From Nocardia jejuensis NBRC 103114 (GTDB lineage: Bacteria; Actinomycetota; Actinomycetes; Mycobacteriales; Mycobacteriaceae), in the NCBI RefSeq assembly GCF_001613145.1, contig NZ_BDBU01000001.1, positions 1 to 64,000 of the forward strand: a DNA stretch of 64,000 bases, in the 5' to 3' direction. Positions 20,855-23,944 of this stretch are shown one piece after another. A model generated the notes under the pieces. It was not told where the DNA came from. It saw nothing but the letters and a program-made list of their open reading frames with translations, and made no database searches. The position numbers were made by a program, and so were the translations under genes. Within the stretch, counting starts at the first letter, position 1; each line of letters begins with the position of its first letter.

Positions 20855-22393
20855 TCAGGGTGCGGTGAGCTCCGCGAGGGCGAACTGGGCGTACGCGCCG
20901 TCCACATCGAGAGTTCCGCCACCGAATACATCCTCGAGGTGGGCTCGCGTGACCGATTGTTCGGCGGCGGCCGACAGCAGCCGCGAGACCGCTTGTCGGA
21001 CAAGGTCACCGGGTCGATGGTCGACGAGACCGGTGACGACCTCGGAGACGGTGGCGTCGGTCCAGACGCCGGGGATCGCGTTCGCCAGCAGCGGGGCGTC
21101 CAGAGACCGACTGCGATACCAGTGGCCGCCGTCCCACCAATAGCAGAAGTTCAGGCGACCGTCGTGGGTTCGGGTGTTCAGGACGGAATTCGTAATCCAA
21201 TCCGGGACACCGGTCAATGCTTCGGTCGGCCCGTGATCGACTGTGCCACCGGAGAATACGACGCGCTCGCGCGGTAGTCGCCGCAGCGTGGATCCGCTTC
21301 CGGTCGCACCTTCGAAGGTCGCGGTGGTGCCGGACGCGATGCGCGGGCCGACCTCCGAGCGAACGGCGACCAATGTCGCTGCGAGCGTTGCCCATCGAGA
21401 CCACACCACCGGCGGGGCGGGAAACTCGCCGTCAGCGAGTACGGGCTGCGCGGGAGTGACAGGCGCGGGAGTGACAGGCACGGGCGGCGCGGGTATCTGG
21501 GGAGCGACGGGCGCGGGCCGCGCGGAGGTTCGGGACGCGACCGGCGTGGGCGCCGCCGAGGTCTGAGCAGTGACAGGCACGAGCGGCGCGGATACCGGGG
21601 GAGCGGCCGGTGCGGGAGGAGGAGTCGGCGGCGCAGTGCTGACGGGAGCCGGAACGGGCGCGCGGTCCGATGTGCCACCCGCCGAGGCACTTTCGGGATT
21701 CCGCACCGGTGCGGCGACTCGGCCTTGTTTGAGAGCCCTTGCGACAGTGAGGAACAGCGTGGATTCCGGTACCTTCGCGACCGGCACCATCGCGTACGGC
21801 CACAGTCGCCGTCCCTTGTTGACCACGATGTATCCGTCGCTCACTTCGAGCTCCCCGACCTCGGGCCACCGCAACGTGCCTTTCGGCGTGTGGATCGCAC
21901 GGGCGTCGAGGCGAATGGGCCCGAACGTCAACACATCTCCACGCGCAATCGCGCGCAGCGACGATTCGATCTGCCGATGCCAGATGGGTTGGATGCTTTC
22001 CCGCAGATACATCGCGTAGCGGGTGTCGTTGTGCTGAGCGTCGGCGAAACTGTGTGCGGGATCGCGGTAGCGATCCTCGAACGAGACGAAACCCCCGTGC
22101 TGATTGCGCAGAACTATCCGGAAGGTCGTGCCGTTGTATGCCCGGTTGGTGCTGTGATTCACCCACGTCTGCTCGACCGTGTCGAACTGTTCCCAGCGCA
22201 TCGCGAACAGCGGCTGCCCGACCATCTTTCGCACCAGCCCGTGCTCGTAGGCATATACGCGATTCCCCACATCGCTGGTCTTGATCAGGCCTTGCTTACG
22301 GGCGACGATGAACATGTCGTTCAGCAGCCCCAAGCGGTGCTCTTGGGCCGCCTGCGCTACCTCGGACGGCACAGGCTCGGACAGACGCGACAA
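20855..22393 (-). CDS. Large two-domain protein: DUF6585-like N-terminal domain, Pro/Ala linker, unknown C-terminal domain
   Basis: A 512-residue protein in three parts. Residues 1-235 include YAYEHGLVRKMVGQPLFAMRWEQ, a GTTFRIVLRNQHGG beta unit and two 30-residue halves consistent with a DUF6585/PH-like module (resemblance noted, not proven). Residues about 245-330 are a Pro/Ala/Val linker of PAP/PVPV repeats. The last 180 residues form an unrecognised domain rich in Trp, with NFCYWWDGGHWYRSRSLDAPLLAN and a helical end. There is no signal peptide. The TTG start follows GGGAGGGG. The linker suggests a sensor or effector joined to a second binding module. The gene stands alone between convergent neighbours, and a dispersed 33-nt repeat lies 124 nt upstream. 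Confidence 0.75.
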   Translation of the reverse strand: MSRLSEPVPSEVAQAAQEHRLGLLNDMFIVARKQGLIKTSDVGNRVYAYEHGLVRKMVGQPLFAMRWEQFDTVEQTWVNHSTNRAYNGTTFRIVLRNQHGGFVSFEDRYRDPAHSFADAQHNDTRYAMYLRESIQPIWHRQIESSLRAIARGDVLTFGPIRLDARAIHTPKGTLRWPEVGELEVSDGYIVVNKGRRLWPYAMVPVAKVPESTLFLTVARALKQGRVAAPVRNPESASAGGTSDRAPVPAPVSTAPPTPPPAPAAPPVSAPLVPVTAQTSAAPTPVASRTSARPAPVAPQIPAPPVPVTPAPVTPAQPVLADGEFPAPPVVWSRWATLAATLVAVRSEVGPRIASGTTATFEGATGSGSTLRRLPRERVVFSGGTVDHGPTEALTGVPDWITNSVLNTRTHDGRLNFCYWWDGGHWYRSRSLDAPLLANAIPGVWTDATVSEVVTGLVDHRPGDLVRQAVSRLLSAAAEQSVTRAHLEDVFGGGTLDVDGAYAQFALAELTAP

Positions 22394-22516
22394 AGGGTCC
22401 CCTCCCTCGATGATGCGTCCGATTGTAGGGACACGGATCGTTCGCGCCGTTCCGAGTGCACCGAGAGAGCCGAGCGATAGGGGTGGGCGAATTCATGCCC
22501 TTCGCGGCAGCCCTGG

Positions 22517-22549
22517 CCTCTGGCTCGCTGATGCCGAGGCCCCCATGGG
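22517..22549. repeat. 33-nt dispersed repeat, copy 2
   Basis: Matches 19006-19038 at 30 of 33 positions. On the minus strand it opens a 17-codon frame (MGASASASQRPGLPRRA) instead of the 10-codon one of copy 1. It sits in the 169-nt gap between the DUF6585-like gene and the small gene at 22563-22772. Confidence 0.65.
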
Positions 22550-22562
22550 TCCGGATCCGGGT

Positions 22563-22772
22563 CTAGCCGCCGGCCTTGCGGTTGGACCAGATGCGCTGGG
22601 CCTGCTCGTTGCTGGTCCGGTTGCTCACCTTCGGGTTGCCGAAACTGTGCTGCTTGGCCTTGCCTTTGCCCTTGGCGGCCCGGCGTTCGGCGCGGTTGGC
22701 GAACTGTGGCTCGTCGGTCGAGGCCTCGGCCTGGTCGTCGGCGGGAGTGGACGACTCGGTGGTATCGGACAT
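22563..22772 (-). CDS. Small basic conserved actinobacterial protein (69 residues), function unknown
   Basis: A 69-residue highly charged protein. The first 25 residues are acidic and low-complexity; the rest has NRAERRAAKGKGKAK and QRIWSNRKAGG, a pattern I know from short proteins of mycobacteria and nocardiae annotated as hypothetical. It may bind nucleic acid, but this is a guess. The ATG is 6 nt downstream of a -10 TAGCGT (minus strand, 22779-22784), so it is probably leaderless. Confidence 0.7.
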   Translation of the reverse strand: MSDTTESSTPADDQAEASTDEPQFANRAERRAAKGKGKAKQHSFGNPKVSNRTSNEQAQRIWSNRKAGG

Positions 22773-22792
22773 TGCCGAACGCTAGCACGCGC

Positions 22793-22821
22793 CGCGCCCC
22801 AGCTCGGCGAGCTGGGGCGCG
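22793..22821 (-). terminator. Terminator hairpin downstream of the guanidinium exporter gene
   Basis: CGCGCCCCAGCTC (22793-22805) pairs without mismatch with GAGCTGGGGCGCG (22809-22821), a 13-bp stem with a 3-nt loop, 15 nt past the exporter stop. The T-run is missing, as is common in high-GC actinobacteria. Confidence 0.6.
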
Positions 22822-22835
22822 GGCGACGCGCAGAT

Positions 22836-23150
22836 CTAGTGTGCGAGTTTCAATCCGACGACCGCGCCGATCAATACGACGATCAGCCCGAGACGCAGCG
22901 GAGAGGCCGCCTCGGTTCCGGTGACCATCGCGTAGAGAACGGTCAGCGCCGCGCCGATCCCCACCCACACCGCGTAGGCCGTGCCCGTGGGCAGGGTGCG
23001 CATGGCGTAGGCGAGACCGGCCATCGACGCGAACAACGCGAGCCCGAAGACCACCGTGGCGGGGAGTTTGGTGAAACCTTCCGAACGGCCCAGTGCCGTC
23101 GCCCAGACCGCTTCCATGATTCCGGAGAGAACCAATACCAACCAAGCCAT
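22836..23150 (-). CDS. gdx: SMR-family guanidinium exporter (Gdx/SugE-type)
   Basis: A 104-residue four-helix SMR transporter, MAWLVLVLSGIMEAVWATAL with the essential membrane Glu13, then LPTGTAYAVWVGIGA in helix 3 and GLIVVLIGAVVGLKLAH at the end. The GTAYAVWVGIGA and LRLGLIVVLIGAVVGLKL patterns fit SugE/Gdx (guanidinium/proton antiport) better than EmrE. Gdx works as a dual-topology dimer in the inner membrane. The gene is preceded by a guanidine-III riboswitch (23167-23210), which is strong functional evidence that it exports guanidinium. AGAGG lies 10 nt before the ATG. The gene is monocistronic and ends at a terminator hairpin. Confidence 0.92.
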   Translation of the reverse strand: MAWLVLVLSGIMEAVWATALGRSEGFTKLPATVVFGLALFASMAGLAYAMRTLPTGTAYAVWVGIGAALTVLYAMVTGTEAASPLRLGLIVVLIGAVVGLKLAH

Positions 23151-23166
23151 GACGAGATACCTCTTT

Positions 23167-23210
23167 CGGTACCGTCTTGTCGCTGTCCGGGTACGGTTTC
23201 GATCGTCCGG
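23167..23210 (-). promoter_or_regulatory. Guanidine-III riboswitch
   Basis: On the minus strand this segment begins CCGGACGATCGAAACCGTAC and continues CCGGACAGCGACAAGACGGT. It shares CCGGACGA, CCGTACCCGG, CAGxGACAAGACGG and the ACCGT/ACGGT stem with the guanidine-III aptamer as I recall it from Thermobifida/Thermobispora-type sequences. CCGG/CCGG and ACCGT/ACGGT pairs can form the pseudoknot. It ends 17 nt before the gdx start, next to the AGAGG ribosome binding site, so guanidine binding most likely frees translation of the exporter. Confidence 0.85.
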
Positions 23211-23347
23211 CGGGCCGATGTGTCGGCTGCTCTCCCAGGATAGCAAATCTTCAGCATTCGGTCTGCCGTGGGTCGGGGTGCCGTTGTTCACCCCGAGGGA
23301 CGTCGCCACCGGGTGCACCCGGAGCAGATCCGAGCGCGGCAGGTCGA

Positions 23348-23944
23348 TCAGGAGACTCGTTCGAGCTTGCGCTGCCGGCGCAGCCGTCGCCGCAGGATGT
23401 ATCGGCGGATACGGCTCGCGAGGAAGTAGACCAGTAGCAGTCCCGAGATCAGAAGTGTTGCGGCACACACGGATGCGAGCACCGGATGGAAGATCGCGAG
23501 CGTGACGATGCCCGCCACCGCGCCGTCCTCCGCCAGACTCATGACGATATTGCTCGCGGGCTCGGGTGAGGTGTTGATCGCCATGCGCGTGCCCGCCTTC
23601 ACCAGATGGCTTGCCAGCGCGGTGGTTCCGCCCACCGCGCCCGCCGCCAGTTGGGGGAGCGAGCCGTCCTGATCGGCCAGCAGCGCCGCCACCACCGCGC
23701 CCGAGGCGGGCCGCACCACGGTGTGCATCGCGTCCCAGAACGAGTCGAGATACGGAATCTTGTCCGCCACCGCCTCGATCAGGAACAGCACCGCCGCGGC
23801 GATCAGCACATCGGTGCGTTGCAGGGCCGGGGGGACGTCATCGGAAATACCGGTCACACCGAACAGGCCGAGAAGCAGAACAACCGCGTACGCATTGACC
23901 CCGCTCGCCCAGCCCGCCGTGAAGATCAGGGGCAGTGCAGTCAC
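23348..23944 (-). CDS. DUF4126 polytopic membrane protein
   Basis: A 198-residue membrane protein of the DUF4126 family with about five hydrophobic segments (GWASGVNAYAVVLLLGLFGVTG; VLIAAAVLFLIEAVADKIPYLDSFWDAMHTVVRPASGAVVAALL). Function is unknown. The highly basic C-terminus (RIRRYILRRRLRRQRKLERVS) lies inside by the positive-inside rule. The GTG start is preceded at 6 nt by the -10 TACGAT (minus strand, 23951-23956), so it is leaderless. It is divergent from the first helical-repeat gene. Confidence 0.8.
   Translation of the reverse strand: MTALPLIFTAGWASGVNAYAVVLLLGLFGVTGISDDVPPALQRTDVLIAAAVLFLIEAVADKIPYLDSFWDAMHTVVRPASGAVVAALLADQDGSLPQLAAGAVGGTTALASHLVKAGTRMAINTSPEPASNIVMSLAEDGAVAGIVTLAIFHPVLASVCAATLLISGLLLVYFLASRIRRYILRRRLRRQRKLERVS

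What the first reader, a model, noticed from the sequence alone, without database searches (positions are those of the whole stretch)
22836..23210. Guanidine-III riboswitch in front of a Gdx-type guanidinium exporter
The leader carries the CCGGACGA, CCGTACCCGG and GACAAGACGG blocks of the guanidine-III aptamer and can form its two pairings; the downstream protein is Gdx/SugE-like. Together they define a guanidine detoxification unit whose transporter would often be annotated as multidrug resistance.
Basis: partly seen in the sequence, partly recalled or inferred. Interest (0 to 1): 0.7.

Follow-up and report, generated by a model that had tools for sequence, protein, structure and literature searches.

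The report
Guanidine-sensing RNA before a guanidine exporter
An RNA element of a known family, predicted to sense guanidine, lies directly in front of a gene that likely encodes a guanidine exporter in what is likely a Nocardia bacterium; the pair is an ordinary member of a known kind, with a predicted switch that would hide the ribosome-binding site.

Summary
Rfam's guanidine-III model matches window 23232-23166 (minus strand) over its full length at 49.2 bits (cut-off 36). The match ends 15 bases before the start codon of a 104-aa SMR gene (23150-22836) that scores far higher against Gdx-Clo than against EmrE and has all five Gdx-Clo binding-site residues checked. The given interval cuts off the aptamer's first 22 bases, with helix P1.

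The linkage is strong: 76 of the 80 best named relatives' loci carry the aptamer. Among 150 genomes of the genus (own included), all 85 with a gdx of at least 57% identity carry it; ten with only 47-54% relatives showed none.

What I add is the likely switch. The 3' strand of helix P2 (GACGGUACC) can instead pair with GGUAU and CGUC around the Shine-Dalgarno sequence, up to the base before AUG (-10.5 kcal/mol). The hairpin recurs in the window's group of 23 leaders with a few compensatory changes, and GUC before the start codon is strongly enriched over other genes. Guanidine would free the site by stabilising P2; this is inferred, and one computation over all 151 leaders does not support it. 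An extended -10 motif suggests the mRNA begins at the aptamer. Known kind; low to moderate interest.

The parts
23237..23245 (-). Predicted extended -10 element TGCTATCCT; predicted transcription start about 23231-23229
   Evidence: TGnnAnnnT ends between -7 and +2 of the aptamer start in 97 of 151 leaders (position profile). The two-hexamer sigma-70 scan found nothing.
23166..23232 (-). Guanidine-III riboswitch aptamer
   Evidence: RF01763, 49.2 bits, model 1-67, gathering 36
23214..23227 (-). Helix P1: GCCGA 23227-23223 with UCGGC 23218-23214
   Evidence: alignment and fold
23187..23210 (-). Pseudoknot helix: CCGG 23210-23207 with CCGG 23190-23187; ACGA at 23206-23203
   Evidence: paired in 23 of 23 leaders, one pair changed on both sides (C-G to U-A) in 4
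23171..23197 (-). Helix P2: ACCG 23197-23194 with CGGU 23174-23171
   Evidence: paired in 23 of 23 leaders, invariant in this group
23151..23176 (-). Predicted alternative hairpin over the ribosome site: GACGGUACC 23176-23168 with GGUAU 23161-23157 and CGUC 23154-23151; uses the P2 3' strand
   Evidence: -10.5 kcal/mol, z -3.53, 1 of 200 shuffles as good; group support
23160..23166 (-). Predicted Shine-Dalgarno sequence AAAGAGG, 9 bases before the ATG
   Evidence: read from sequence; best anti-Shine-Dalgarno match of the leader
22836..23150 (-). gdx: SMR-family gene, 104 aa, likely guanidinium exporter
   Evidence: PF00893, Gdx-Clo best solved relative, translation
22785..22831 (-). Very stable hairpin just after gdx, no T-run; possibly the transcript's 3' end
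   Evidence: -42.8 kcal/mol, z -5.52, 0 of 200 shuffles as good; no intrinsic terminator by the scan

Best explanation
This is a guanidine-III riboswitch aptamer in front of an SMR-family gene that is likely a guanidinium exporter (gdx), and guanidine binding is predicted to switch its translation on. Shown: the family match, its place 15 bases before the start codon, the protein family and the conserved linkage. Inferred: without guanidine, the 3' strand of P2 (GACGGUACC) would pair with GGUAU and CGUC around the Shine-Dalgarno sequence and up to the start codon, holding ribosomes off. With guanidine, P2 and the pseudoknot would form, the hairpin would lose its base, and ribosomes could start on gdx. 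The exporter, likely an antiparallel homodimer that exchanges guanidinium for protons as Gdx-Clo does, would then lower guanidine and let the switch close. The mRNA is predicted to begin at the aptamer, which could also shield it from 5'-end decay.
For: RF01763 at 49.2 bits. Gdx-Clo 71.7 bits against at most 35.1 for EmrE chains; of the genome's five SMR genes only this one has E13, W16, S42, Y59 and W62 and only this one has the aptamer. 76 of 80 named loci carry RF01763 at gathering score. All 85 genus genomes with gdx of 57% or more are among the 86 with RF01763. Hairpin -10.5 kcal/mol, z -3.53; all 23 leaders of the group pair at least two Shine-Dalgarno bases with upstream bases (15.7 expected from shuffles), mean z -2.42; inner helix paired in 95.6% of cells, two pairs with double changes; RNAalifold, given only the alignment, predicts the same hairpin. 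GUC directly before the start in 88 of 151 leaders against 18 of 547 other starts, paired with GAC of the P2 strand in 80 of 88 folds. No intrinsic terminator in the leader. The class is reported to act on translation and mRNA stability (PMC12186494, passages).
Against: Over all 151 leaders the mean openness of the Shine-Dalgarno bases does not rise when the P2 strand is blocked (0.49 to 0.47; in the group 0.29 to 0.38, in the window 0.34 to 0.50). Shuffles that keep GACGG and the Shine-Dalgarno core already pair the site in 95.7 of 151 expected, against 118 observed. Two covariation measures are not clearly beyond shuffles (196 of 500 and 21 of 500), and the outer GAC/GUC helix is paired in only 63.8% of the group's cells. 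The whole-leader fold is not unusual (z -1.66, 15 of 200). The structure counted was taken from one member's fold (L166), which favours it over slid versions. After collapsing similar leader tails only 6 of 18 representatives have GUC. No ligand or transport data; the SugE equivalog cut-off is not met.
Confidence: 0.85

Rival explanations
1. The riboswitch works mainly through mRNA stability: the ligand-bound aptamer at the extreme 5' end would block RNase E scanning, and the hairpin over the ribosome site would be of minor weight.
For: The review PMC12186494 reports that guanidine-III protects mRNA from RNase E scanning (passages). The extended -10 motif next to the aptamer predicts that the aptamer is the 5' end. 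Mean Shine-Dalgarno openness over all leaders does not change when the P2 strand is blocked.
Against: It does not explain the hairpin's recurrence in the group or the enrichment of GUC before the start codon.
Confidence: 0.25
2. The hairpin over the ribosome site is a by-product of GACGG lying close to a purine-rich, GG-bearing ribosome site, and is not selected.
For: Shuffles that keep GACGG and the Shine-Dalgarno core already give 15.7 of 23 in the group and 79.9 of 128 in the rest.
Against: Mean energy z -2.42 in the group and -1.70 over all leaders; 85.9% paired against 33.0-58.6% slid; GUC before the start in 88 of 151 against 18 of 547.
Confidence: 0.2
3. The gene exports other cations (quaternary ammonium or polyamine type), and guanidine is only the inducer.
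For: The best NCBIfam model is named for quaternary ammonium efflux, but below cut-off. Gdx-Clo also transports hydrophobic substituted guanidinyl cations (PMC7695847, passages).
Against: W16, conserved in Gdx and glycine or alanine in the Qac subtype, is present; similarity is far higher to Gdx-Clo than to EmrE.
Confidence: 0.07

Closest known systems
Guanidine-III riboswitch (ykkC-III, Rfam RF01763)
   Same: Full-length model match, P1, P2, pseudoknot, ACGA, in front of an emrE/sugE-type gene, in an actinomycete, as described for the class (PMC2864571, passages)
   Different: Belongs to a sequence group with GAUCG after the pseudoknot strand and a longer hairpin over the ribosome site; no departure in the model's most conserved blocks
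Gdx-Clo, guanidinium exporter of the SMR family (PDB 6wk5, 6wk8, 6wk9)
   Same: Aligned without gaps over residues 1-102, with E13, W16, S42, Y59 and W62
   Different: Divergent elsewhere (71.7 bits over 104 residues); transport not tested
EmrE, Qac-type SMR drug exporter
   Same: Same Pfam family; E and Y..W positions shared
   Different: Much lower similarity (at most 35.1 bits); W16 present here

Membership tests
Guanidine-III riboswitch (RF01763) | Covariance-model score at or above the gathering score | tested here: met
   49.2 against 36 bits
Guanidine-III riboswitch (RF01763) | P2 and pseudoknot helices | tested here: met
   8 of 8 pairs formed in 23 of 23 leaders of the group; one pair with a double change in 4
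Guanidine-III riboswitch (RF01763) | Conserved ACGA of the binding core | tested here: met
   23206-23203; conservation stated in PMC2864571
Guanidine-III riboswitch (RF01763) | Binds guanidine | not testable with these tools
   needs in-line probing
SMR family (PF00893) | Pfam gathering score | tested here: met
   64.7 against 23.7 bits
Gdx subtype | Binding-site residues E13, W16, S42, Y59, W62 | tested here: met
   residues from PMC7695847
Gdx subtype | Association with a guanidine riboswitch | tested here: met
   in the window; 76 of 80 named loci
Gdx subtype | Guanidinium/proton exchange | not testable with these tools
   needs a transport assay
NCBIfam SugE equivalog (NF008512, PRK11431) | Score at or above the curated cut-off | tested here: not met
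   87.5 against 126 bits; so not filed as that equivalog

The most novel reading that the evidence does not exclude
Actinobacterial guanidine-III leaders use the aptamer's own strand GACGG as a two-way latch: it closes either P2 or a stem that ends in a conserved GUC fused to the AUG, so that promoter, sensor, ribosome site and start codon form one cassette of about 100 bases with no separate expression platform.
Probability: 0.45. Interest if true: 0.4.

Novelty: new member of a known kind. Interest (0 to 1): 0.25.

Why it matters
It points to the function of a gene that would be labelled multidrug or quaternary-ammonium efflux, and it gives a testable two-state model for how guanidine-III leaders of actinomycetes could reach the ribosome site. 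The clean co-occurrence in one genus (85 of 85) separates the sensor-linked gdx from other SMR genes by sequence identity. It does not open a new class of system.

Tried and rejected
Intrinsic terminator as expression platform: none found in 22700-23400. Sigma-70 two-hexamer promoter: none found there; an extended -10 alone is the better reading. A second guanidine-III copy in the genome: none found. Pairing of the aptamer core CCGGACGA with UCGUCAUGGC at the start codon: strong in the window (-13.2 kcal/mol), but over 140 leaders only slightly better than random other starts (-5.61 against -4.84, p 0.024), so not claimed. The large plus-strand ORF over the gene (22281-23243) was taken as an antisense artefact without a test. 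P1 was not counted across the group because the alignment had it out of register.

Limits of the counts. One search used stricter filters that can lose weak aptamers; one search's list is cut, but in order of E-value and well below the hits counted here. Five without a gdx-like start were dropped (L127, L141, L151, L167, L169) and ten duplicates, leaving 151. One search shows that in three of the 151 (L006, L075, L109) the start codon was called wrongly, and L161 looks decayed; they were not removed. Start calling was faulty for part of the leaders; the numbers given come and later. The control starts were called by a simple rule (ORF of at least 150 aa, purine-rich motif upstream), so some are wrong. 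Collapsing leader tails at 75% similarity leaves 18 representatives, 6 with GUC. Two of the 38 genus labels stand for MAGs without a genus.

Literature. Sherlock and Breaker 2017 (PMC5315414) and Richards and Belasco 2021 (PMC7796952) are not held, so I cannot say whether the latch or the start site is in print. Listings of searches showed no title on it. I saw passages of PMC12186494, PMC2864571, PMC8492726, PMC7695847, PMC7266159 and PMC7736828, and of the other papers listings only.

Full report
WHAT IS THERE. On the minus strand, 23232 to 23166, the window holds a full-length match to Rfam RF01763, the guanidine-III riboswitch (49.2 bits, gathering 36, E 3.6e-7). It is the only Rfam match in the window at gathering thresholds and the only RF01763 match found in the genome of 8.65 Mb. 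The aptamer ends 15 bases before the ATG of a 104-codon ORF, 23150 to 22836. The genome is likely a Nocardia: two contigs of same-genus genomes have the exact lengths of contigs named Nocardia cyriacigeorgica and N. neocaledoniensis (29,898 and 50,143 bases).

THE APTAMER. P1 is GCCGA/UCGGC, the pseudoknot helix CCGG/CCGG, P2 ACCG/CGGU. In 23 aligned leaders of the window's group (those with GAUCG in the aptamer and GACGGUA at its 3' side) both P2 and the pseudoknot helix are paired in every sequence, and one pseudoknot pair changes on both sides (C-G to U-A) in four. The ACGA called perfectly conserved in PMC2864571 (passage) is kept in the window.

THE PROTEIN. It belongs to PF00893. Its nearest solved relative is Gdx-Clo (71.7 bits, residues 1-102 without gaps); EmrE-type chains score 35.1 bits or less. 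E13, W16, S42, W62 and Y59 of the Gdx-Clo substrate site (PMC7695847, passages) are all present. The genome has five SMR genes, and only this one has the full set. The nearest-looking other copy (L174) has E13 and W16 but A at 42 and F at 62; in Gdx-Clo S42A and W62F reduced or eliminated exchange. The NCBIfam SugE equivalog is not reached (87.5 of 126 bits), so the gene is Gdx-type by residues and context, not a member of that equivalog.

THE LINKAGE. The four without are L055, L068 (contig begins 12 bases before the gene), L071 and L074. Of 150 genomes of the genus, the window's own included, 86 have RF01763 at E up to 0.001 and 85 have it over the cut-off. All 85 genomes with a gdx of at least 57% identity (one truncated, one partial) are among the 86; the odd one is G023, whose leader L161 looks decayed. 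Ten genomes with relatives of only 47-54% identity had no RF01763 match.

THE LIKELY SWITCH. The bases from GACG to the start codon fold into a hairpin in which GACGGUACC pairs with GGUAU and CGUC and takes up part of the Shine-Dalgarno AAAGAGG (-10.5 kcal/mol, z -3.53, 1 of 200 shuffles as good). CGGU of the same strand is needed for P2, so the two states exclude each other. In the group all 23 leaders pair at least two Shine-Dalgarno bases with upstream bases (15.7 expected from shuffles that keep GACGG and the Shine-Dalgarno core), mean z -2.42; over all 151 distinct leaders the figures are 118, 95.7 and -1.70. On the MAFFT alignment the inner helix is paired in 95.6% of cells and the whole structure in 85.9%, against 33.0-58.6% when slid; two pairs show U-A to C-G changes on both sides, in three cells, the window among them. 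The structure counted was taken from one member's fold (L166), which favours it, but RNAalifold given only the alignment predicts the same hairpin. Across the 151 leaders GUC stands directly before the start codon in 88, against 18 of 547 other starts in the same 80 loci. It occurs in 39 of 76 named leaders and 27 of 38 genus labels, and GUC pairs with GAC of GACGG in the minimum-energy fold of 80 of the 88. With P2 forced in the window's leader, the mean unpaired probability of the six best Shine-Dalgarno bases rises from 0.35 to 0.72, at a cost of 3.1 kcal/mol that ligand and pseudoknot would have to pay. That program cannot form the pseudoknot, and both of its folds also pair the start codon with the aptamer core.

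AGAINST THE SWITCH MODEL. Over all 151 leaders the mean openness of the Shine-Dalgarno bases does not rise when the P2 strand is blocked (0.49 to 0.47), although the fold loses at least 3 kcal/mol in 117 of 151; in the group openness rises from 0.29 to 0.38. In many relatives an inner hairpin would remain and would have to be opened by the ribosome. Two measures of covariation are not clearly beyond shuffles (196 of 500 and 21 of 500), the outer GAC/GUC helix is paired in only 63.8% of the group's cells, and the whole-leader fold is not unusual (z -1.66, 15 of 200). Collapsing similar tails leaves 6 of 18 representatives with GUC. The model is my best reading, not a demonstration.

THE START OF THE MESSAGE. 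A motif TGnnAnnnT ends between -7 and +2 of the aptamer start in 97 of 151 leaders. In eight-base bins it is seen in 87 and 12 leaders in the two bins next to the aptamer and in at most 2 in each of the other six. In the window it is TGCTATCCT at 23245-23237, which predicts a start at about 23231-23229. The mRNA would then begin with the aptamer. This would fit the reported protection from RNase E scanning (PMC12186494, passages) but is a prediction from sequence; the two-hexamer promoter scan found nothing.

COMPARISON AND NOVELTY. The ykkC-III motif before emrE-type genes, mainly in Actinobacteria, was described in 2010 (PMC2864571), and later work is reported to show guanidine binding and to predict action on translation (PMC12186494; PMC7266159). 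This is a new member of that known kind. The primary papers on the class were not held, so I make no claim that the latch is unreported.

Noticed in passing
L176:1501-1637 minus (G000:C23:189755-189891): The window's own genome has a weak match to the guanidine-I (ykkC) family, 36.3 bits against a cut-off of 63, just upstream of an EamA-type transporter gene (L176:543-1448 minus). It keeps CUAGGGUUCCG and GGGACAAAAGCC; it may be a ykkC variant with another ligand (recalled, not tested).
   Followed up: partly
L141:280-1158 minus, with the aptamer just upstream (G042:C7:30270-30335): A guanidine-III match of 51.6 bits stands in front of a metallo-beta-lactamase-fold hydrolase gene, not gdx. Relatives of that hydrolase at 76-81% identity in four other genomes showed no complete set of aptamer motifs nearby by a simple motif scan.
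   Followed up: partly
L151, L169, L161, L127: Likely remnants: aptamer-like matches without an intact gdx start (L151, L169), a weakened aptamer and gene start (L161) and a gdx match lacking its first ten residues (L127).
   Followed up: no
L153 and L155: Two leaders of the window's group read CCGA in place of the conserved ACGA of the binding core, yet keep P2, the pseudoknot and a gdx start.
   Followed up: no
G012, G027, G058, G061, G069, G071, G093, G094, G100, G106, G115, G117, G118, G133: In 14 genomes of the genus the gdx match is followed about 10 bases later by a second SMR gene of 51-60% identity to the window's gdx, possibly a two-subunit exporter under one riboswitch.
   Followed up: no
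L013:2904-2991: The Gordonia effusa aptamer match spans 88 bases instead of about 65, with an insertion between the pseudoknot strand and GACAAGACGG.
   Followed up: no
window 22567-22770 minus: A 67-residue ORF follows gdx on the same strand; no Pfam or NCBIfam match at E 0.001.
   Followed up: no
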